In this document: positions 18,050 through 30,906 of the stretch, piece after piece | How the letters are laid out: each line of letters starts with the position of its first letter | Numbering within the stretch: the stretch's first letter is position 1 | NCBI RefSeq assembly: GCF_004354985.1 | Contig: NZ_SMSK01000021.1 | Coordinates: forward strand, 1 to 64,000 | Direction: 5' to 3' | Source: Segetibacter sp. 3557_3 | GTDB taxonomy: Bacteria > Bacteroidota > Bacteroidia > Chitinophagales > Chitinophagaceae | Length of the DNA: 64,000 bases | Position numbers and translations under genes: made by a program | The notes under the pieces: model-generated | Seen by the model: only the letters and a program-made list of their open reading frames with translations | Databases searched by the model: none | What the model was told of the DNA's origin: nothing

Positions 18050-19668
18050 TTTTTTAAAGTTTATAGGGTTAAGGGTGATTTGGTTTGCAAGGAGTATTAT
18101 TGATGTTAGCTCATAAATGGATTTGTTTCAAGTGTATAAAAACTTTGCACTTCCTGTTGTACTTGTCTACCAATAAGCGTCAACCTGGTAAATGGTAAGT
18201 GTCATTTGAGATTAACACCGCTTACTACATTATAAATCCGTGTACAGGATAAAAATTCATCGATCGTAACTTCGGCAACTTGTAATACCTCTACCGCCCA
18301 AAGCAAATGAAAGAGGTCTTTATATCTTCCGGCGCTAACACAACAGTTTTTCGCAATACGAAACTGGTTAGCATATACCTGGCTATGGTATCAAAATGAT
18401 TATGGACTATTGCTCGTGTAAGCTGAAGAAGATTAGAACAGAACAGCTTTGCCCGGTGAAAAGCTTATCACATCCTGGCTGATGTTAAACTGACCTGGAG
18501 CCAAAGAAAATAAATTATAGGTGATGTTCAAAGCATTTTTGATTAAAAAGTATGAAGGTTAATTTGTCGCCCATAGCTCCTGGTTTTTACAAATGAAATC
18601 ATAACCTAAATGCGTGGGGATAGGTTGAACCAAGGGGATCTTCCGGTTGCGGTTGCCGGTATTATGGTAGATAGGGAAGATCCGCGGACGGCCTAACGAA
18701 GCAGAGACATTGGCGTCTGGTATTGTGAGATCATTCTTCCGCCCTGCAGCCGAAGTATAAGCGCAATCCCCATATCGCATCCCAATCATTACCGTTAACC
18801 TACGTGCTAGCCAGTTTTATGCGGCTGATGATGGTCTTAAATCTAATCACAGAAACACATCACCCGGAACTAATCAGGGGTCGGGTGCCGCCTGCCCTTT
18901 TGAGCTTGTATCAACTTATTCTATCCGCAACTTCTGGTGGCTGTTACCCGACGATAGTAGCGGGGGGGTATGTGGCAGGGCCTCACCGCATAACGCAACT
19001 TCCTGACTACGTTGTAATACCTGGGTGACATTGTCAAGCAAATGGAAGTTTATCATTTAAAGGTGAGTGCACGGCGAAAACAAACACAGTTGCCACGACT
19101 CTTTCCAATTGCTTGTTAGCCTGCAATTTCTGCGATTAGTTTGTTGTGTTAAACCCCGGATACCTGTTGTTTTTAAGCAGATAGACACCACCTTTGGGAA
19201 ACTAGTTACGACCAAATGGAAATAAGCCATTGCAATAATAATTTCAGCAGTTTACCTTTACTGAATATCCGGTGTCCTTCTTAATTATTAGTCGCACTCG
19301 CAATCATTTCAAGGATTTGATCATCAGCCCGGTTATTGGTGCGCCCGGAATGTTCACGCCGTTTTAAAGATGATACTAATGCTACTTTCATTATTTAGGA
19401 ATTGACCAATATTTTGGCACATAGGGTTAGGCATAACTTTAGAAAGATCCTTACTTACACGCAACGTCAGCTATATATTTATTAATTCATACTTCGCTAA
19501 TCTATCAAGAAAGAAAAGGTTTGATCTTGTTTTAATCTCAGCTTAATTATTCTGTTTATTTTATTTTAATTAGTCAGGTAAATTTCTTGTCAGCATTAAA
19601 AGCTCGCAGACCAGCGTGTGTTTTAATTTATAATCCAATCAATTTTTGCTAAAGCCATAAATTATCCA
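18050..19668. other. 1.6 kb gap without a recognised gene
   Basis: No gene could be supported. Frames at 18559-18789 (minus) and 18804-19028 (plus) lack recognisable domains and may be chance. The last 250 bases are strongly AT-rich and probably hold the promoter for the LytTR gene, but no clear -33/-7 pair was located. Confidence 0.5.
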
Positions 19669-20205
19669 ATGATGGAGCCTGTAAAATCCGGGAGTACTCA
19701 AGAGGCTCCCATCGAGGGCATGGAGAACGAATTTGGTTTTTCTTGTCAGCTTTTAACGGACAATTCCGAAACTATAAATTCTTTAGATTCAAGCAATTCA
19801 GCTTCGAAGCACCTCAATGCCAGGTCTGGAAACAATCAATCTATTAAGGATGAAAATAACATCCAATCAAACAGCCTCCTGCGCTTATCTGTCAAGGATG
19901 GAGAATATACTTATGCAAAGGCCGACGATATAATCATGATTGAGAGCAGTGATCATTTAACAATTGTACATGTTGCGCGACAGTCCGGAAAGGTGAAAAG
20001 AACAATACGCAATACTTGCTTAAAAGATTTTATAGCTGAATTACCTGTGAATTATTTTTTAAGGGTAAATCGTTTTTGCGCAATTAATTTAAAACGTCTC
20101 TCCGGGGGAAGTTACCATGGTCAATATTTTGAATTTGATCATTGTATAGTAATTAAACCCAAACGGCCGATTGCCCACGCTATATTTAATTCAATTGGTA
20201 AGTGA
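19669..20205 (+). CDS. LytTR-domain DNA-binding protein
   Basis: A 178-residue protein. Residues about 1-70 are Ser/Asn/Glu-rich and unrecognised. Residues about 73-178 form a LytTR DNA-binding domain (YTYAKADDIIMIESSDHLT, FLRVNRFCAINL, a pattern typical of the fold). There is no receiver domain, so it would be controlled by something other than direct phosphorylation. LytTR regulators in other bacteria often control secreted factors, bacteriocins or autolysis. The gene lies directly upstream of, and on the same strand as, the repetitive protease polyprotein; I infer it regulates that gene. Two adjacent ATG codons open the frame. Confidence 0.82.
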   Translation: MMEPVKSGSTQEAPIEGMENEFGFSCQLLTDNSETINSLDSSNSASKHLNARSGNNQSIKDENNIQSNSLLRLSVKDGEYTYAKADDIIMIESSDHLTIVHVARQSGKVKRTIRNTCLKDFIAELPVNYFLRVNRFCAINLKRLSGGSYHGQYFEFDHCIVIKPKRPIAHAIFNSIGK

Positions 20206-20556: not shown

Positions 20557-23500
20557 ATGGAAACAAAATCCAAAGTAACACAACGTAGCCTCCGTCATGC
20601 GCACAATGAGCTGCCGAATGGTAACGGCGGCAGGCAGCCGCTTGCAGACCAGCTGACGGATGAGTCAGACTTTTCTGACCAGGTGGTTGAAGAAGTGCCA
20701 GGCACTACAGACGAAGCCATGCCTGCAGAGTCAGGTACTGAACTAACCCTGGCAGACGGGCACCGCCCCGTAATCAGCCCGGCAATCAGGCCGGGGAGAA
20801 AACGCGAATTTGCGGAGTCTGCAGCTGAAGCCGACCCCGTAGTTGAAGCTTCCCTTGCAAATATTAACTCCTCACAGGACGAGCAGGAGTTTTGGGGAAC
20901 ATTCGCCAGTGCGATAGCACCCTTACTGGTGAAAACCGTAAAACAAACCGGTACAACTGTGGTAAAAGCGGGCATAAAGAAGCTTAGTCCCACACTTGCT
21001 AATATGCTAAAGCAAGAGGGCTTCAGCGAAAGTGCCATTCGGCAGCTGGAGTCCATGCAGCAGGAGTCTGGCATCGATCAGTCTGCTGTACTTGGCCGGG
21101 AGTTTTGGCAAAAGCTCGCTAATGCATGTATGCCTGTTTTGAGGAAACGACCCGGAATGTATCCAGGCCTTTATCCGGGTTCATACATGCAAAAGGGTAT
21201 TGCTAACAAGCAGTCAGATGGAAACCAGAACGAAGCAGGTACAGGCGAACGTGAATTCTGGGGAGCCATAGCCAGCGCCGTTGTGCCTGCGCTAATGCCC
21301 GTTGCAAAAAAAGCAGTTGGCGTAGCAATTAAATCCGGCACTTCCATCGTCAAAAGTGGAATGAAAAAGATTTTTGAGTCCAGCGAGCAGGAGTCAGATG
21401 GCGGTACAGAAGCAGGTGTTCAGCACCTTGAAGAACTGTTCCTGGGGCACCTTGATTTAAACCAGCAGGAGTCGCAGTCGGATACCGCCCAGGGCGAGCG
21501 GGAGTTTTTTGGCTCTTTGGCGAAGAAACTGGTACCGGCGCTTATGCCTATCGCGCAAAACCTCGCCGGTACAGCCATTAAAACTGCCACTTCCGCAGTT
21601 AAAGGTGGTATCAAAAAACTTAGTCCTACGCTCTCTAACATGTTGAAACAGGAGGGCTTTAGTGAAGCCGCCATACAGCAACTTGAAGCAAACAAGAAGC
21701 CAGGTGGCGCTACCCAGGCTGTGGGTGACCGTGAATTCTGGGGTGCAATCGCCAGTGCGCTGGTGCCTGTATTGACGCCTGTAGCTACAAAAGTTGCAGG
21801 AATGGCAATTAAGTCGGGCACATCTATGGTTAAAAGCGGTATCAAGAAAATATTTGAGTCCAGCGAGCAGGAAGCCGGAACAGCAACAAATGCTATCAGT
21901 GAACAAGTGGAGGCCATGTTCCTTGAAGAACTGGAGAATGGACAGCAGGAATTTGGCAGTGACACTGGGCAGGGAGAACGGGAGTTCTTCGGTGCGCTAG
22001 CCAAAAAGCTTGTTCCCGTATTGATGCCAGTTGCGAAATCGGTGGCAGGCTCGGCCGTCAAAGCCGGAACCTCGTGGGTGAAGAAAGTGTTTGAGTCCAG
22101 CGAACAGGAGTTTGATGGCAGTGACGAAGTAACCAGCCAATTGGAAGCTATGTTCCTTGAACAATATGAAGCTAACCAGCAGGAGTCAGCTACAGAAACA
22201 GCCTCTGCCCAGCGTGAATTTATTAGTGCCTTCGCAAAGAAGATTGTTCCCATCTTCAATCCTATAGCGAAAAGTTTGTCCGGTATAGTCCAGACCGGGG
22301 CTAAAAAGTTCAGTCCCATCCTGATGAACATGATGCGCCAGGAAGGTATCAGTGAATCTGCTATCCGCCAGCTGCAGGCAAGCCAGGAGAAAGCAGGTGC
22401 TCAGGCCTCTACCGGTGAACGGGAGTTCTGGGGAGCCATTGCGAGTGCACTCGTGCCAGTGCTAACACCCGTTGCAAAGCAAGTTGCCGGGGCAGCCATT
22501 AAGTCGGGTACAGCCCTGGTTAAAGGTGGTATTAAAAAGATTTTCGAGTCGCAACAGGAGTCCGGAACCAATGCGCAATCTGCAGCCCGGCAATTGGAAA
22601 CCTTATTTATGCAAGAGCTGGAGTCCAGCGAGCAAGAAACAGGCGCCGGGTCTGCTTCAGGCGAGCGGGAGTTCTTTGGTGCATTGGCCAAAAAGCTGGT
22701 GCCTGTATTGATGCCGGTAGCACAAAGCCTGGCAGGCACTGCAGCCAAGGCCGGCACCGCAATAGTGAAAAAAGTCAGTCCTAAGCTTGCAAACATACTC
22801 CGCACGGAAGGCTTTAGCGAAAGCGCTATCCAACAATTGGAGTCAGGCCACGCCGAGTCCGGAATGGGTGAACGGGAGTTTTGGGGTTCTATAGCAAGTG
22901 CTATTGTTCCTGCACTGGCGCCTGTTGCAAAAAAACTGGCCGGAGCAGCGGTTAAATCAGGCACATCGTTCGTAAAAAGTGGTATTAAAAAGATCTTCGA
23001 GTCTTCTGAGCAAGAAGATGATTATGAAGTTGAAATGCTGGTACAGGAACTTGAGTCCCACTTTCTGGAGGAGACAGAAACCATTCAGCAGGAGTCCAGT
23101 AATGGTGTTGAATCAACTGAAAATGAGCGTGAATTTTGGGGATCCCTGGCAAGCGCACTTGTGCCTGTATTGAAGCCAATAGCAGGAGCCGCGGTAAAAA
23201 AGGGTACCTCCTTTGTAAAAGGCAGTATAAAGAAAATGTTTGAGTCCTCCGAACAGGAGGATGGTGAAGAGTCTGCATCAAGTGACCGTGAGTTTTGGGG
23301 ATCGCTGGCCAAGGTGCTTGTGCCAGTTTTGAAACCAGTTGCAAAAAATGCTGCCGGGGCAGCAATAAAGGCAGGCACCTCTTTCGTGAGCGGCGGTATC
23401 AAGAAGATATTTGAGTCCAGCGAGCAGGAAGCAGGAGATTTAGCGGTGGCGGAAGCGACAGCAATTTTACAGCAGTTTGAGGCGATGGAAGTAATCATAG

Positions 23501-24159
23501 ATACGGACGAAAGAATACAGATTACGAATACAACAGATGTTCCTTTCAGAAGAATCTGTCACCTGAGCATTAAAGCAGCCGATGGTACCTCTTACCTGGG
23601 TACCGGGTTCTTTATCGGGCCGCGCACCATTATAACCGCTGGGCACTGTGTCTATATTCATGAGCACGGAGGATGGCCACAGCAGATCATTGTTTCACCA
23701 GGCCGCAACCTCGCCAACCGGCCTTACGGGCAGATTGTAGCAACCAGCTTTGCTTCTGTTAAAGGCTGGGTAGACAACCAATCGAGAAACCATGATTACG
23801 GGGTAATACACCTGGCTAAAACCGACAAGGTATCTCCCGCAATTGGATCTTTTGGATTTGGCAAGTTCTCCGACGATTCAATAATGGCCAAGGAACTGAG
23901 CACTGCCGGCTACCCTGGCGATAAACCATCGGGTACCATGATGTTCAATAGTCGTCGGGCAACAGCAGTAGACGCCAACACCATCGTTTACGAAATTGAT
24001 ACAGTAGGTGGACAAAGTGGATCACCGGTTTACGATGAGAACAATGTTGTGGTGGGCATTCATACAAACGGGGCCTCATCCGGCAATTCGGCCACACGCA
24101 TCAACCAATCTGTTTTTAACAACCTGAATAAATGGCGCTTACAAGGCGGAGCCATTTGA
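20557..24159 (+). CDS. Repetitive amphipathic-helix polyprotein with C-terminal glutamyl-endopeptidase-like protease
   Basis: A 1200-residue protein in three parts. Residues 1-110 are polar and acidic, with no signal peptide. Residues 111-958 hold about twelve repeats that begin (R)EF(W/F)G, run through an Ala/Val/Pro-rich segment (AIASALVPVLTPVA), then a Lys-rich amphipathic helix, and end in acidic linkers such as KKIFESSEQE. Residues about 995-1195 are an S1B-type serine protease. H1030 (TAGHC), D1080 (NHDYG) and S1154 (GGQSGSPV) form the triad, and VVGIHTNG holds H1169 in the position of the histidine that gives V8 protease its preference for Glu. The linkers between repeats are Glu-rich, so the enzyme may cut its own linkers and release cationic peptides. 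Alternatively, the repeats could be a scaffold or membrane anchor. I know of no described homologue. Confidence 0.85.
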   Translation: METKSKVTQRSLRHAHNELPNGNGGRQPLADQLTDESDFSDQVVEEVPGTTDEAMPAESGTELTLADGHRPVISPAIRPGRKREFAESAAEADPVVEASLANINSSQDEQEFWGTFASAIAPLLVKTVKQTGTTVVKAGIKKLSPTLANMLKQEGFSESAIRQLESMQQESGIDQSAVLGREFWQKLANACMPVLRKRPGMYPGLYPGSYMQKGIANKQSDGNQNEAGTGEREFWGAIASAVVPALMPVAKKAVGVAIKSGTSIVKSGMKKIFESSEQESDGGTEAGVQHLEELFLGHLDLNQQESQSDTAQGEREFFGSLAKKLVPALMPIAQNLAGTAIKTATSAVKGGIKKLSPTLSNMLKQEGFSEAAIQQLEANKKPGGATQAVGDREFWGAIASALVPVLTPVATKVAGMAIKSGTSMVKSGIKKIFESSEQEAGTATNAISEQVEAMFLEELENGQQEFGSDTGQGEREFFGALAKKLVPVLMPVAKSVAGSAVKAGTSWVKKVFESSEQEFDGSDEVTSQLEAMFLEQYEANQQESATETASAQREFISAFAKKIVPIFNPIAKSLSGIVQTGAKKFSPILMNMMRQEGISESAIRQLQASQEKAGAQASTGEREFWGAIASALVPVLTPVAKQVAGAAIKSGTALVKGGIKKIFESQQESGTNAQSAARQLETLFMQELESSEQETGAGSASGEREFFGALAKKLVPVLMPVAQSLAGTAAKAGTAIVKKVSPKLANILRTEGFSESAIQQLESGHAESGMGEREFWGSIASAIVPALAPVAKKLAGAAVKSGTSFVKSGIKKIFESSEQEDDYEVEMLVQELESHFLEETETIQQESSNGVESTENEREFWGSLASALVPVLKPIAGAAVKKGTSFVKGSIKKMFESSEQEDGEESASSDREFWGSLAKVLVPVLKPVAKNAAGAAIKAGTSFVSGGIKKIFESSEQEAGDLAVAEATAILQQFEAMEVIIDTDERIQITNTTDVPFRRICHLSIKAADGTSYLGTGFFIGPRTIITAGHCVYIHEHGGWPQQIIVSPGRNLANRPYGQIVATSFASVKGWVDNQSRNHDYGVIHLAKTDKVSPAIGSFGFGKFSDDSIMAKELSTAGYPGDKPSGTMMFNSRRATAVDANTIVYEIDTVGGQSGSPVYDENNVVVGIHTNGASSGNSATRINQSVFNNLNKWRLQGGAI
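20887..23430 (+). repeat. Twelve in-frame repeats within the polyprotein gene
   Basis: Repeat starts, by residue, are 111, 181 (degenerate), 232, 315, 392, 475, 553, 622, 704, 783, 858 and 911. Two forms partly alternate: an A form (EREFWGAIASALVP...KKIFESSEQE) and a B form (EREFFGALAKKLVPVLMPVA). Some copies carry an added helix ending EGFSESAIQQLE. A-to-A and B-to-B spacing is often 160 residues, indicating duplication of an A+B pair. Confidence 0.9.
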
Positions 24160-24277
24160 TCACGTGAATGAAGTTGGTAAAGGTGGGCTGGATAGTAGCA
24201 GTACGCTCCGGCCCAACATTGTTATCAGCTTTCTTCAAACGAGAAGCTTTATACATTGTTTACCAGTAAAGCAGAAT

Positions 24278-24556
24278 ATGATGGGATCAATAACCGGTAT
24301 CATTCGGAACGCTAATGACGTTCCCCTCGAGGATGTAAATGTACTCATCGTGTCGGGCCCAAACCACAATGATGTTGCCGTTATAACGGGTGCTGATGGG
24401 CAATTTAGCATTAACAACATTCAGCCTGGCAATTATGTACTAAAAGCATACGGTCAGGTGGAGAGCGATGAGGTGCCGGTTCAGGTTCAAACGGAGCAAG
24501 TGCCTTTCGTAGAGATCTGGCTCGACGCAGATGTTGCCAGCGGAACAACCAGGTAG
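24278..24556 (+). CDS. Small carboxypeptidase-regulatory-like (CnaB-type) domain protein
   Basis: From the tandem ATG codons at 24278 the protein has 92 residues. It is a single carboxypeptidase-regulatory-like beta-sandwich: MGSITGIIRNANDVPLEDVN at the start, then GADGQFSINNIQPGNYVLKA, the typical pattern of the fold. No signal peptide or transmembrane segment is seen, so it resembles its neighbour in lacking an export signal. The frame is open back to a GTG at 24164, five bases after the protease gene stop; that longer start would add 38 unlikely residues. The close spacing suggests co-transcription with the polyprotein. It may be a binding partner or accessory protein. Confidence 0.7.
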   Translation: MMGSITGIIRNANDVPLEDVNVLIVSGPNHNDVAVITGADGQFSINNIQPGNYVLKAYGQVESDEVPVQVQTEQVPFVEIWLDADVASGTTR

Positions 24557-25834: not shown

Positions 25835-27925
25835 ATGTTATTAGCTGTACTGTCTGGATTTATTGTTGCTTCAATTATCCCTTTAATCGGTAAATGGCTG
25901 AAAGGAAAGTGGTCGGTCGTTATGACAATGCTTCCCCTGACCTTGTTTGTCTACTTCCTTTCGCTTATACCATCCCTCCCGGCAGATCAGCACCTTCTTG
26001 CTTCCTACAACTGGGTTTTGACCATGGGCATTAATCTCAGCTTTTTAGTTGATGGATTGTCCCTGTTGTTCGCCCTGATGATAACCGGGATAGGGGTCCT
26101 GGTATTCCTTTATACCTCGGCTTACATGAAAGGCGATGCTTATCTCGACAGGTTCTACGGCTACCTTAGCCTGTTTATGGGTGCGATGCTTGGGATGGTG
26201 CTTTCGGATAATATCTTCACCTTGTTCGTATTCTGGGAGTTGACAAGCATCAGTTCTTTTTTCCTAATCGGGTATAAAAATGAAAGTACAGCTTCACGCA
26301 AGTCCGCTTTGATAGCGCTTGCTGTTACAGGTTTAGGCGGATTTTTTTTGCTGGCTGCTTTTGCTATGTTGGGCACAATCGCCGGAACCTATTCAATACA
26401 GGAGATGATAGGTTCCGGTGATCAGTTAAAGGAACATCCGGCTTACCTGCCCATAATGGTCTGTTTGTTTTTTGCTGCATTTTCTAAGTCGGCCCAGTTT
26501 CCACTCCATTTTTGGTTGCCTGGCGCCATGAAAGCACCCACTCCCGTCTCCACTTACCTTCACTCTGCTACAATGGTTAAGGCAGGTATATACCTGCTGG
26601 CGAGGTTTACCCCGGTATTGGGTAATGTACCCGAGTGGAACAATACGTTACTGATAGTGGGCGGCTTCACCATGTTGTATGCAGCCTTTCACGCTATTTT
26701 TAAAAAGGACCTCAAAGAGATACTGGCTTACTCGACAATATCTGCGCTGGGTATGCTGGTGTTTTTATTGGGCCTGGGAACATCGGAAGCGTTGCTCGCT
26801 ATGCTGGTATTTATCGTTGTGCATGCGTTGTATAAAGCCACTTTGTTCCTGGTAACGGGCATTATCGACCATCAAACAGGAACCCGGGACACCACGGTAT
26901 TATCCGGGTTGCGAAAGGTAATGTTGCCTGTAGCAATAGCAGGTGGGTTGGCAATGTTGTCTAATTCAGGTATACCGCCAACGATTGGTTTTGTAGGCAA
27001 AGACCTGGTTTATGCATCTACCCTAAGTTCTGAAGGATTTGCAATCATCATGACGGTTGTTGCGGTCATAACCAATATACTGCTGCTGTATGCCAGTGTT
27101 TTGGCAGGAATAAAACCTTTTGCAGGCAAACTGCCTTCAACCTTAGAAAATACCCGCTTGCCCGAATGGCGATTATGGCTGCCACCTTTAGTCTTAGGCA
27201 TTGCCGGCCTGGTGCTGGGCTTTTTTCCTCATATACTGGAAGGCGGGATTCTAGGGCCCGCACTCAATGCACTAGTGCCTTCAGCTGCCGAATTCCATTT
27301 GCAGTTATGGCACGGCTTTAATTTTGTATTAGCCCTGAGCGCAATCACCATTGCAGGTGGTTTGTTATTATACCGGTTCTTTAAGCCCGGTACAGGGGCA
27401 TCAGCAATACTGGCAAAGCTTCATAAAACATCGCCCGAAAATATTGCCCATCTTTTCAATCGAAATTTCAGGGTTTTTGCTACCCGCTGGACCAGCGTGC
27501 TGCAGAATGGATATTTAAGGATCTACATACTCACCATCGTTTTTTTTCTTACCGCCTTAATGGCATATAAATCGATGACGAAGGTTGTCGTGTCAGTTAA
27601 CCTGAATAAGGTATCACCGCTGACATCCACCGAACTGGTTGTGATGTCTATCCTGATTATCGCGATAATCTATGCGGTTTATACACCGTCGCGGCTGTCT
27701 GCAATAGCAGCTATGGGCGTTATCGGGTATTGCGTGTGTTTGATCTATGTTTTTTATAGTGCACCTGACCTGGCCATGACCCAGTTTGCTATCGACACCT
27801 TAACCGTGATCCTTTTTGTTTTAGTACTGTATAGGTTCCCAAATACATCAACCATTCAAGTTGGCCGATCAGGATACGTGACGGTTTGGTTTCATTGGTT
27901 TTTGGATCGCTGGTTACCATCTTAA
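25835..27925 (+). CDS. mrpA: Na+/H+ antiporter subunit A, MrpA/MnhA (frame broken near its 3' end)
   Basis: The 696 residues cover the NuoL-like transporter core and part of the C-terminal extension of MrpA. HFWLPGAMKAPTPVSTYLHS is the canonical membrane-transporter signature. The region PDLAMTQFAIDTLTVILFVLVLYRFP corresponds to the MrpA C-terminal domain. After QVGRSGY the frame degenerates and stops at 27925, while the expected continuation (NVVNVILVDFRGIDTM) lies in the -1 frame at 27886-28143. Joined, the gene would have about 769 codons, the normal MrpA size. The shift point is about 27860-27885. It could be real, a programmed shift or a one-base sequencing error. MrpA is the large proton-channel-like subunit of the Mrp complex in the inner membrane, which exchanges Na+ or K+ for protons. 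Confidence 0.88.
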   Translation: MLLAVLSGFIVASIIPLIGKWLKGKWSVVMTMLPLTLFVYFLSLIPSLPADQHLLASYNWVLTMGINLSFLVDGLSLLFALMITGIGVLVFLYTSAYMKGDAYLDRFYGYLSLFMGAMLGMVLSDNIFTLFVFWELTSISSFFLIGYKNESTASRKSALIALAVTGLGGFFLLAAFAMLGTIAGTYSIQEMIGSGDQLKEHPAYLPIMVCLFFAAFSKSAQFPLHFWLPGAMKAPTPVSTYLHSATMVKAGIYLLARFTPVLGNVPEWNNTLLIVGGFTMLYAAFHAIFKKDLKEILAYSTISALGMLVFLLGLGTSEALLAMLVFIVVHALYKATLFLVTGIIDHQTGTRDTTVLSGLRKVMLPVAIAGGLAMLSNSGIPPTIGFVGKDLVYASTLSSEGFAIIMTVVAVITNILLLYASVLAGIKPFAGKLPSTLENTRLPEWRLWLPPLVLGIAGLVLGFFPHILEGGILGPALNALVPSAAEFHLQLWHGFNFVLALSAITIAGGLLLYRFFKPGTGASAILAKLHKTSPENIAHLFNRNFRVFATRWTSVLQNGYLRIYILTIVFFLTALMAYKSMTKVVVSVNLNKVSPLTSTELVVMSILIIAIIYAVYTPSRLSAIAAMGVIGYCVCLIYVFYSAPDLAMTQFAIDTLTVILFVLVLYRFPNTSTIQVGRSGYVTVWFHWFLDRWLPS

Positions 27926-28143
27926 GCCTGGAGGCATTTTATGAGGTCACCAATAAAGAAACCGCAAGATTTGTTGCAGAGAACGCTTACACACTGGCCA
28001 AAGGAAAAAACGTAGTAAATGTGATCCTAGTGGACTTTCGGGGAATAGATACCATGGTTGAAACAACAGTATTAACCATTGCAGCATTAGGTGTATTTGC
28101 ACTTCTGAAGTTGCAATTAAATAAATACGACCAGGAATTATGA
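27886..28143 (+). pseudogene. mrpA: Displaced C-terminal part of MrpA
   Basis: The 85 codons encode the MrpA C-terminal signature KNVVNVILVDFRGIDTMVET followed by a hydrophobic helix VLTIAALGVFALLKL. It overlaps the end of the main mrpA frame in the -1 frame and starts with a TTG only by convention. Reading one frame back, RDGLVSLVFGS precedes it, as expected in MrpA. The fragment ends ATGA, overlapping the mrpB start codon, as in an intact operon. Confidence 0.8.
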
Positions 28144-28550
28144 AACTATTGATATTAAGAACCACCGCAAACTTTCTACTTCCGCTATTGCTGTTGTTTT
28201 CGCTCTTTCTTTTATTACGAGGGCATTACCTGCCTGGAGGCGGCTTTGTGGGCGGGATCATTGCAGCCATAGCTTTCGTATTGCATGCATTTGCCTTTGG
28301 ATTAAGAAGTACCCGAAAGCTACTCAGGGTGCATCCGATATCATTTATGCCCGTGGGGCTTGGTTTAGCCGTATTCAGTGCTCTACTGCCGTTATTAAAG
28401 GGCCTGCCCGTGATGACAGGGTTATGGCTGGATGAGCCTTTCCCGGTGGTAGGTTTGGTAGGCAGCGCACTGTTATTCGACGTGGGAGTTTACCTGGTTG
28501 TTCTGGGTGTGGCGCTAACAATTATTTTCACCATTTCAGAATCTGTGTAA
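28140..28550 (+). CDS. mrpB: Na+/H+ antiporter subunit B, MrpB/MnhB
   Basis: A 136-residue membrane protein with four hydrophobic helices. [20 protein letters not shown] near residues 26-45 is the MrpB hallmark. It forms part of the Mrp complex beside MrpA. The start overlaps the mrpA C-terminal stop by ATGA, and mrpC begins two bases after its stop, indicating translational coupling. Confidence 0.95.
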
Positions 28551-28551
28551 A

Positions 28552-28908
28552 ATGGAGATCATCTTAGCGATCATTGTCGGACTGCTGTATGCATCCGGAA
28601 TTTACCTGATGCTCAGACGAAGCCTGGTGAAACTTGTTGTGGGACTGGTGCTGTTGGGTAATGGGGTAAACCTTTTAATTTTCTTATTGGGAGGGCTTGT
28701 GAGGGGGAAACCGCCGATCATTCCTGCTATGGATCGTGTGTTAGGTGAAATTTATGCTGATCCGGTGCCCCAGGCCCTGATCCTTACCGCCATCGTAATC
28801 AGTTTTGGCATGCAGTCCTTTGCCATTGTTCTTATAAAGCGCACTTATATCGTATTGGGTACCGACGACATGGACGAAATACACACAACAGAGGAAGAAG
28901 ATGACTAA
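28552..28908 (+). CDS. mrpC: Na+/H+ antiporter subunit C, MrpC/MnhC
   Basis: A 118-residue NuoK-like subunit with three helices. [20 protein letters not shown] and [20 protein letters not shown] are the characteristic segments. A polar acidic tail ([14 protein letters not shown]) follows the last helix. Its end overlaps the start of mrpD by eight bases. Confidence 0.95.
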
Positions 28909-30430
28909 TAACCTGATCATATTACCAGTAATGCTTCAGTTTACGCTGGCAATTGTTTTATTATTCTTCTGTAAAAGAATAGCGGCGCAAAAAATAATTA
29001 GTATAGCAGGAAGCATTGTTGCAGTTGTTATCGCTGTTGGTTTATTTCGCCAGGTTTACGAAAAGAGCATACTAACGATGCAGGCTGGTAATTGGAAGGC
29101 GCCTTTCGGGATAACTTTCGTAGCCGATACGTTTAGCACCACAATGATTTTGCTGGCATCGTTATCAGCCCTTGCCGTTGCGGTGTTTTCCACGGTGAGC
29201 ATAAAAAGAGCGAGGATGAAATTTGGTTATTTTCCAAGTTTTCATTTCTTGATCATGGGTTTGAACGGCGCATTTCTTACCGGGGATATCTTTAATTTAT
29301 ACGTATGGTTCGAAGTCATCATCATCTCGTCGTTCGTATTCATCACCCTTGGGGGTAAGAAAGTTCAGATTGAAGGAGCCGTAAAATACTTTACGCTCAA
29401 CTTCCTGGCCTCCATGATTTTTCTTACAGCAATTGCGGTACTTTATGGGCTTGCAGGAAGCTTAAACATGGCTGACTTATCGGGCAAAATTCAAACCATC
29501 AAAAACCAGGGAGTGGTTCAGGTAATCGCTATTTTGTTCCTGGTAGGTTTCGGAATAAAGTCAGCTATCTTTCCCTTGTATTTCTGGTTGCCGGACTCTT
29601 ATCACACCCCTCAGGCAGCTATATCTTCCATCTTTGCGGGATTACTCACCAAGGTAGGAATTTACGCCCTTCTCCGGGTTTTCAGCCTGGTATTTATCCC
29701 TGATGATTTTATGAAAACCCTGGTGGTAATCCTGGGCGGACTAACCCTTTTCAGCGGCGGCCTGGGCGCACTTGTTCAAACGAATATGCGTAAGATGTTT
29801 TCTTATATGATCGTCTGCCACATAGGTTACATGATTGGTGGTATTGGGATGTTCACTGCTGCCGCATTATCAGGCGCAGTATTCTACCTTATTCATGACA
29901 TCATTGTTAAAACAAATCTTTTTCTCGCAGGAGGGCTGATCTATAAAATAAATGGGGAGGTTAATATGAAACGGATGGGGAGCATGTATGAACAGTATCC
30001 GGCATTATCGCTCCTGGTTGCCGTACCACTGTTTTCGTTAATTGGTGTGCCGCCATTATCAGGTTTTTGGCCGAAAATCAATCTTATGAGCGAGAGTTTT
30101 GTTACGGGTAATTACTATCTGTTGGGCTGTATTATATTCGGGAGCTTCATTACTTTATTCGTGATTACCCGGTTTTGGTCTGAAGTATTCTGGAAAAAAA
30201 GGGAAGCACTTGCCAGGAAGCCATACATCAGGTATTTTGATCAAATGTCGCGGTCACAGAAGACGTTCCTGATTACGCCAATTGTATTCCTCAGTATCAT
30301 TTCCCTGTACATAGGCCTGGGTGCAGAAAACATCTTCAGGCTTTCGAATCATATAGCAGCTGAATTGGTTGATACATCAACTTATATCGATGCCGTCCTG
30401 GGAGCTGCAACAACCAATGTAACGCCATGA
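28901..30430 (+). CDS. mrpD: Na+/H+ antiporter subunit D, MrpD/MnhD
   Basis: A 509-residue NuoN/NuoM-like proton-pumping subunit with about fourteen helices. [20 protein letters not shown] is the conserved transporter motif, and [14 protein letters not shown] carries the conserved membrane glutamate. It pairs with MrpA as one of the two antiporter-like subunits. It overlaps mrpC by eight bases and mrpE by four. Confidence 0.95.
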
Positions 30431-30906
30431 TGCAAAAGCGGTTTTTACTAAACATATTACTTACGCTGGTGTGGATAGCACTAACGGGCTCCTTTACTTA
30501 TATCAATTTGTTCTTCGGTTTTGTGATCAGCTTTTTTGTGCTTTGGATCATCAGCAGGGGGAACCCCGACAAACGCTACTTTACCATCCTTTTTAAAGTG
30601 ATAGGGTTCTTCTTTTACTTTCTGTATGAAATGCTCAAGGCGAATTTCCAGGTAGCTTACGAAGTCATGACTTTCAACCTGCATATGAAACCCGGGATCG
30701 TTAAAATGGAGCTGGATGCGCGAACAGATCTTGAAATTACATTACTCGCAAGCCTGATTTCCCTTACACCTGGCACATTGGTTATCGATGTTTCGGATGA
30801 CAAAAAGGTCATGTACGTTCATGGCATGTACCTCGAGGATCGTGCCCGATTTATTGAGTCCATCAAGATGGGGCTCGAGAGGCCGCTGCTTAATATTATG
30901 CGTTAA
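30427..30906 (+). CDS. mrpE: Na+/H+ antiporter subunit E, MrpE/MnhE
   Basis: A 159-residue subunit. Two N-terminal helices are followed by a cytoplasmic domain with LISLTPGTLVIDVSDDKKVM, the family signature. It overlaps mrpD by ATGA. MrpE is required for full complex activity in characterised systems. Confidence 0.95.
   Translation: MMQKRFLLNILLTLVWIALTGSFTYINLFFGFVISFFVLWIISRGNPDKRYFTILFKVIGFFFYFLYEMLKANFQVAYEVMTFNLHMKPGIVKMELDARTDLEITLLASLISLTPGTLVIDVSDDKKVMYVHGMYLEDRARFIESIKMGLERPLLNIMR

What the first reader, a model, noticed from the sequence alone, without database searches (positions are those of the whole stretch)
20557..24159. Repetitive cationic-helix polyprotein fused to a Glu-specific-type protease
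Seen: about twelve repeats of an amphipathic, Lys-rich 35-50 residue unit joined by Glu-rich linkers (FESSEQE), then a complete chymotrypsin-fold protease with triad H1030, D1080 and S1154 and the GIH histidine (H1169) that marks V8-type glutamyl endopeptidases. Known: such enzymes cut after Glu. Inference: the protease cuts its own linkers and releases membrane-active peptides, making a self-processing toxin or antimicrobial polyprotein. No export signal is present, so release by lysis or an unusual export route would be needed. I know of no described system of this design.
Basis: partly seen in the sequence, partly recalled or inferred. Interest (0 to 1): 0.88.

Follow-up and report, generated by a model that had tools for sequence, protein, structure and literature searches.

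The report
Self-cutting chain of cationic peptides
A soil bacterium carries one long protein that looks like a string of twelve membrane-active-looking peptides fused to the enzyme that could cut them apart; the layout fits a self-processing peptide weapon but needs a direct laboratory test.

Summary
Confirmed: ORF 20557-24159 (1200 aa) holds twelve cationic (+5 to +7) cores of 37-50 residues, Glu-free but for the cut end, in Glu-rich linkers, then an intact V8-like glutamyl-endopeptidase domain. New: (i) the mature start of solved glutamyl endopeptidases aligns to V979, right after E978; Glu holds that place in 52 of 59 rows, so self-activation is plausible. (ii) The mostly signal-less family spans many phyla; 49 of 60 relatives analysed have a small transthyretin-like gene downstream (window 24164-24556) with a loop acid in 50 of 50, 0 of 28 generic rows: a candidate inhibitor. 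(iii) The protease clusters with exactly the four relatives (of 59 scanned) that carry ONE cationic hydrophobic Glu-free core. (iv) The array was found only here (1 of 394 family, 1 of 395 phylum genomes); five type-A cores show high to saturated dS, low dN. The self-processing reading is strengthened, but cleavage and membrane activity are untested, homology of window cores to single cores is only suggestive, and known V8-type enzymes usually need a second protease for final activation.

The parts
20557..20889 (+). N-terminal acidic leader, residues 1-111, no hydrophobic signal; loosely alignable with the leader of repeat-free genus relatives
20890..21018 (+). core 1, residues 112-154, +6, SPxLxN tail
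21103..21234 (+). core 2, residues 183-226, degenerate, +5
21256..21378 (+). core 3, residues 234-274, +6
21505..21654 (+). core 4, residues 317-366, +7, SPxLxN tail
21736..21858 (+). core 5, residues 394-434, +5
21985..22095 (+). core 6, residues 477-513, +6
22219..22344 (+). core 7, residues 555-596, +6, SPxLxN tail
22426..22548 (+). core 8, residues 624-664, +5
22672..22809 (+). core 9, residues 706-751, +7, SPxLxN tail
22879..23001 (+). core 10, residues 775-815, +6
23134..23244 (+). core 11, residues 860-896, +6
23293..23415 (+). core 12, residues 913-953, +6
23488..23493 (+). predicted activation junction E978|V979
   Evidence: residue 1 of mature glutamyl endopeptidase chains aligns to V979; Glu at P1 in 52 of 59 rows, window included
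23491..24156 (+). V8-like glutamyl-endopeptidase domain, residues 979-1200; H1030 (23644), D1080 (23794), S1154 (24016), S1 His H1169 (24061)
   Evidence: PF13365 44 bits against cut-off 27.6; PDB 1wcz E 4.1e-20; Foldseek 1p3c E 8.9e-18, TMt 0.89
24164..24556 (+). small transthyretin-like (CarboxypepD_reg) gene, probable true start 24278 or 24281 (inference from relatives); candidate inhibitor or partner; conserved loop acid is D70 of the long ORF
   Evidence: PF13620 41.1 bits against cut-off 32.3; same gene downstream in 49 of 60 relatives; loop acid 50 of 50, 0 of 28 generic rows

Best explanation
The gene encodes a self-processing precursor. A V8-like protease, made as a signal-less zymogen, frees its own N-terminus by a cut at E978|V979, which completes its Glu-reading pocket; it then cuts the Glu-rich linkers and releases up to twelve cationic, mostly amphipathic peptides of 37-50 residues, which act on membranes (of competitors, or of the producer during lysis). 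The acidic linkers keep the cationic cores neutral until then. The small downstream transthyretin-like protein is the cognate inhibitor, offering its invariant loop Asp/Glu to the Glu pocket, and holds the enzyme in check in the producer. Shown: the architecture, intact active-site residues, Glu at the junction across most of the family, the partner gene and its special loop, purifying selection on the type-A cores. Inferred: Glu specificity, self-cleavage, inhibition, membrane activity, route of release.
For: Sequence and fold nearest to glutamyl endopeptidases (the fusion relative L084 likewise). Residue 1 of the mature chains aligns to V979 in three of the four alignments displayed (two enzymes: staphylococcal V8 twice, and Bacillus 1p3c); the fourth is a pro-form chain aligned from its residue 36; the table gives the same start for mature Esp 4jcn and 6pym. 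P1 Glu in 52 of 59 rows. Passages of the review PMC5508998: the Streptomyces enzyme self-processes at Glu(-1)-Val1, and V8-type enzymes complete their S1 pocket only with the freed N-terminus. Twelve Glu-bounded cores, rare in background; ten of ten pairs of five type-A cores show dS 1.2 to saturated and dN 0.08-0.22. Of 59 relatives scanned, four have one Glu-free stretch of 49-93 residues, +8 to +10, hydrophobic, starting after Glu with Phe, before the protease; these four are the nearest clade of the window protease (100/94 and, with L033, 97/86). In the alignment of these four with the last window unit plus protease, the only invariant residues before the protease are E138, F139, E204 and the junction E218 of L032. 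Partner gene; fused to the protease in one Polyangium protein.
Against: No cleavage or activity data. The same review says that native V8-like enzymes cut themselves only to inactive forms with 3-15 propeptide residues left and are finally activated by another protease; the Glu at P1 here may lift that need, but a second protease may be required. 55 of 59 scanned relatives have no such core. Asp is nearly absent from the cores too (1 in 12 cores), so lack of Glu may reflect charge segregation alone. The window repeat profile finds the single cores only weakly (best E 0.038 for L034, 0.18 for L052, 1.5 for L033, L032 not listed); profile-profile gives 70% and E 4e-5 over 34 columns with borders that I chose. 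In the five-row alignment the window row was cut to its last unit by me. No export route is known. AlphaFold gives the units as helices only at low confidence. The model of the natural protease-partner fusion does not settle docking (pTM 0.68, no coordinates or PAE to inspect). The partner sequences were gathered with a profile made from themselves, and the loop alignment to generic domains is mostly gaps.
Confidence: 0.4

Rival explanations
1. The helical units stay attached and act as a membrane-inserting, anchoring or translocating pro-region that carries the protease to or across a membrane; expansion to twelve raises avidity. The linkers only balance charge.
For: No hydrophobic N-terminal signal; single cores of relatives reach KD averages of 1.69-2.03 over 19 residues, near transmembrane level; position directly before the protease.
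Against: Junction Glu in 52 of 59 rows argues that the pro-region is cut off; window cores are less hydrophobic, 0.12-1.49 over 19 residues.
Confidence: 0.22
2. The array is an enlarged inhibitory or folding-assistant propeptide with no function after removal.
For: V8-type enzymes have a long folding-assistant propeptide removed by self-cutting (passages of PMC5508998); the relatives extracted have a leader too.
Against: 52 of 59 relatives have a leader of only about 60-160 residues and 55 of 59 no core; twelve cores, with selection on the five compared, seem more than one protease fold needs; units are not predicted to pack on the protease with confidence.
Confidence: 0.17
3. The protease and its partner form an intracellular toxin-antitoxin-like or abortive-infection pair; the cores are pore formers acting on the producer's own membrane when the protease is unleashed.
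For: Both genes are adjacent or overlapping in most of the 49 loci that have both; mostly no export signal.
Against: PADLOC models match only over the protease domain; no defence-type neighbour family was recognised by eye among shared neighbours of 60 loci (only clusters in 4 or more loci printed); in several Chitinophagaceae the partner has a hydrophobic or lipoprotein-like N-terminus (by reading), which suggests the cell envelope.
Confidence: 0.15
4. Neutral repeat growth of a low-complexity leader, no function.
For: Found in one genome of 394 and 395 examined.
Against: High to saturated synonymous but low non-synonymous change between the five type-A cores compared; reading frame intact over 12 copies.
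Confidence: 0.06

Closest known systems
V8-like glutamyl endopeptidases (Bacillus intermedius 1p3c, staphylococcal 1wcz/1qy6, S. epidermidis Esp 4jcn/6q12)
   Same: Fold, triad, S1 His, place of the mature N-terminus
   Different: Those have a signal peptide and propeptide (PMC5508998 passages); here no signal, a 978-residue leader-and-array before the mature enzyme, and a linked transthyretin-like gene
Arterivirus nsp4 and other 3C-like polyprotein proteases (PMC5508998 passages)
   Same: A Glu-reading chymotrypsin-fold protease embedded in the polyprotein that it cuts
   Different: Viral replicase proteins, not repeated peptides; only a sub-threshold Pfam match to the arterivirus family (15.9 bits, cut-off 24.7)
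Multi-copy antimicrobial peptide precursors with acidic spacers in animals (recalled; one search gave a search listing only)
   Same: Cationic peptides with acidic spacers
   Different: Secreted and cut by separate host proteases (recalled); no fused protease
Multi-core bacterial peptide precursors such as cyanobactins (recalled)
   Same: Several products from one precursor, dedicated protease
   Different: Protease is a separate protein and cores are short and cyclised (recalled); here 37-50 residue cores fused to the protease

Membership tests
V8-like glutamyl endopeptidase | Chymotrypsin fold with His-Asp-Ser triad | tested here: met
   PF13365 over cut-off; aligned triad invariant in 29 of 29 rows; Foldseek 1p3c TMt 0.89
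V8-like glutamyl endopeptidase | S1 His (GxH) C-terminal to the catalytic Ser | tested here: met
   H1169; invariant in 29 of 29 rows. Of 61 sequences a strict pattern finds it in 52; seven more have it by reading, L080 is truncated, L085 lacks it
V8-like glutamyl endopeptidase | Hydrophobic first residue of the mature enzyme freed by processing | tested here: met
   V979 aligns to residue 1 of mature chains; the cut itself was not tested
V8-like glutamyl endopeptidase | Signal peptide before the propeptide | tested here: not met
   No hydrophobic N-terminus in the window, nor in 57 of 61 sequences, window included; simple hydrophobicity test, no signal predictor
V8-like glutamyl endopeptidase | Cleavage after Glu | not testable with these tools
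   Inferred from S1 His and junction Glu
Antimicrobial peptide polyprotein | Several cationic amphipathic cores with acidic spacers | tested here: met
   the degenerate core 2 is the weakest (moment 0.33, GRAVY -0.86)
Antimicrobial peptide polyprotein | Release of cores and antimicrobial activity | not testable with these tools
   needs protein or peptide work
Antimicrobial peptide polyprotein | Export signal | tested here: not met
Transthyretin-like protease inhibitor (proposed for the downstream gene) | CarboxypepD_reg/transthyretin-like fold | tested here: met
   PF13620 over cut-off for the window gene; beta strands at high confidence in the model of the L084 fusion; window gene itself not folded
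Transthyretin-like protease inhibitor (proposed for the downstream gene) | Loop that binds the active site | tested here: inconclusive
   Loop acid 50 of 50, absent in 28 generic rows; docking not shown by the fusion model

The most novel reading that the evidence does not exclude
A bacterial self-processing polyprotein: one gene carries twelve membrane-active peptides, the acidic spacers that silence them, and the Glu-specific protease that activates itself and then frees them, with a linked acid-loop protein as its inhibitor or immunity factor. A simpler one-peptide form of the same design exists in a cyanobacterium, two Acetobacteraceae and a member of Gemmatimonadota.
Probability: 0.36. 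Interest if true: 0.9.

Novelty: new variant of a known kind. Interest (0 to 1): 0.74.

Why it matters
If true, it would be a peptide weapon that needs no separate processing gene, with the release code (cut after Glu) written into its spacers, giving about twelve natural variants of one peptide from one gene. Independently of the cores, a widespread, mostly signal-less protease family with a dedicated partner gene in 49 of 60 relatives analysed is a testable protease-inhibitor pair candidate in bacteria and archaea.

Tried and rejected
Repeats elsewhere: none in the own genome outside this gene (E up to 1); 1 of 394 family and 1 of 395 phylum genomes, the own genome both times, both sets being samples of larger groups; in genome contigs 11 stretches matched a pattern, none confirmed; in viral contigs 58 and, for the protease with core, 12 stretches, none confirmed; no match in plasmids; nine phage records matched, all over the protease part. 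No Pfam or NCBIfam match over its cut-off in the array; TIGR04117 (30.1 bits, cut-off 50) and phrog_10957 (E 2e-7, 41 residues) touch the array and I judge them compositional without test. One core against PDB sequences: nothing up to E 10.

Neighbours: apart from the protease/partner group (55 loci, merged by the clustering), the largest shared neighbour group is in 10 loci and others in 7 or fewer, mostly shared Niastella/Longitalea surroundings but not only; the injection-system link that I had in mind found no support there and was not tested further. Two long ORFs among A9 matches (1570 and 1563 aa): the first was read and is a different multidomain protein without such cores, the second was not read. 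A first fold alignment misplaced the partner rows and was dropped.

Literature: searches found 0, 0, 0, 0 and 1 papers; some searches gave listings of which I saw titles and abstract starts; none of those seen describes this design. Only open-licence papers are held. Of PMC5508998 I saw passages only.

Limits: of 276 confirmed relatives the tool kept 80 loci; I extracted 60 and left out 20. L080 was cut short by my extraction. The tree had 59 rows, without L080 and L085; the core scan had 59, without L080. In one search, 30 loci gave 28 rows, one locus twice. On re-checking, confidence was lowered slightly (0.42 to 0.40; novel case 0.38 to 0.36) for the review's statement on second-protease activation.
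Full report
What is there. The ORF at 20557-24159 encodes 1200 residues. Residues 1-111 are an acidic leader with no hydrophobic signal. Residues 112-953 hold twelve cores of 37-50 residues (the terminal Glu counted), Glu-free inside, +5 to +7 each, in Glu-rich linkers. Residues 979-1200 are a V8-like protease with H1030, D1080, S1154 and H1169.

More than chance. Shuffling the array gives 5.6 Glu-free runs of 25 or more on average and at most 11 in 5000, against 12. In 402 background proteins similar runs (Glu-free, 36-60 aa, charge at least +5, GRAVY at least 0.25) occur 27 times, never three in one protein, against 11 here. Among five type-A cores, ten of ten pairs have dS from 1.2 to saturated with dN 0.08-0.22: old copies held by purifying selection, not a recent or assembly-made duplication. 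A caution: Asp is as rare as Glu in the cores, so charge segregation alone could explain the lack of Glu.

The protease. Sequence search of solved structures puts staphylococcal and Bacillus glutamyl endopeptidases first, and so does fold search with the AlphaFold model (1p3c, E 8.9e-18, TMt 0.89). With the upstream residues included, residue 1 of the mature chains (1wcz, 1qy6, 1p3c in the alignments shown; 4jcn and 6pym in the table) aligns with V979, right after E978. In the 59 rows that could be read, window included, 52 have Glu at that exact place. Passages of a review (PMC5508998) say that the Streptomyces enzyme processes itself at Glu(-1)-Val1 and that V8-type enzymes complete their S1 pocket only when the N-terminus is free; but also that native V8-like enzymes usually need a second protease for the final cut. 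Self-activation at E978|V979 is therefore motivated, not shown.

The family. Three genus genomes that share the protease have contigs of the same lengths as three Segetibacter MAG contigs, so the window genome is taken as a Segetibacter-group member (Chitinophagaceae). Three of nine other genus genomes have the protease, without repeats. A scan of named genomes gave 276 relatives, 80 kept, whose titles include Bacteroidota, Pseudomonadota, Actinomycetota, Cyanobacteriota, Chloroflexota, Verrucomicrobiota, Myxococcota, Bacillota and archaea. Sixty were extracted: a leader, mostly acidic, and the protease; 57 of 61 sequences including the window lack a hydrophobic N-terminus.

The partner gene. 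Within 600 bp downstream, 49 of 60 relatives and the window have a small CarboxypepD_reg (transthyretin-like) gene, often overlapping the protease gene. In a Polyangium protein (L084) the same domain is fused behind the protease. Its loop carries an acid in 50 of 50 sequences, 38 Asp and 12 Glu. Of 28 generic CarboxypepD_reg rows from the own genome (30 loci supplied), none has an acid there; 22 have a gap and six another residue. An acid in an extended loop is what an inhibitor of a Glu-reading enzyme would offer; this is inference. The fold of the natural fusion was confident per domain but did not settle docking.

Single-core relatives. With the criterion of a Glu-free leader stretch of 30 or more residues, charge at least +4 and a 19-residue KD average of at least 1.0, four of 59 relatives qualify (L032 Leptolyngbyaceae, L033 Gemmatimonadaceae, L034 Paeniroseomonas, L052 Acetobacteraceae). 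Their stretches are 49-93 residues, +8 to +10, start after Glu with Phe, and lie between leader and protease. In the protease tree the window groups with exactly these four (100/94 for three of them, 97/86 with L033), and all four have the partner gene. In an alignment of the four with the last window unit plus protease, the only invariant residues before the protease are E138, F139, E204 and the junction E218 in L032 numbering; the window row was cut to one unit by me, so columns further upstream could not be invariant. Homology of the cores themselves is only suggestive: profile search weak (best E 0.038; L032 not listed), profile-profile 70% and E 4e-5 over 34 columns.

How rare. The array occurs in 1 of 394 family genomes and 1 of 395 phylum genomes, the own genome in both. 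The protease family itself occurs in 17 of 394 and 4 of 395 at E 1e-25, own genome included. Among the listed matches only the own ORF and two others exceed 420 aa; of those two, one was read and is a different multidomain protein.

Interpretation. The best reading is a self-processing peptide precursor with a linked inhibitor candidate; its strongest support is comparative (junction Glu, Glu-bounded cores in a clade, partner loop). The weakest links are the unknown release route, the possible need for a second activating protease, and the untested membrane activity. Rivals are a membrane-inserting pro-region, an enlarged propeptide, and an intracellular toxin-antitoxin-like pair.

Noticed in passing
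19669-20205: LytTR-domain protein (PF04397) directly upstream of the polyprotein gene on the same strand; no receiver domain matched; possible regulator.
   Followed up: no
18050-19668: About 1.6 kb with no ORF of 80 aa or more and no Rfam match, next to the locus.
   Followed up: partly
L084:1855-5010: Polyangium protein with an N-terminus that looks metallo-beta-lactamase-like (by reading), the V8-like protease, the transthyretin-like domain and a peptidoglycan-binding-like C-terminus (by reading).
   Followed up: partly
L066, L071, L074, L075, L079, L087, L088: Relatives with Ser instead of Val/Ile as first residue after the junction Glu, a change that weakens the staphylococcal enzyme strongly according to PMC5508998 passages; may mark altered specificity.
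   Followed up: no
L159, L160, L078: Niastella-type relatives with an extra inserted segment inside the protease domain and no clear Glu junction.
   Followed up: no
25835-30906: Genes that look like a multisubunit Na+/H+ antiporter (Mrp) cluster downstream of the locus (by reading, not searched).
   Followed up: no
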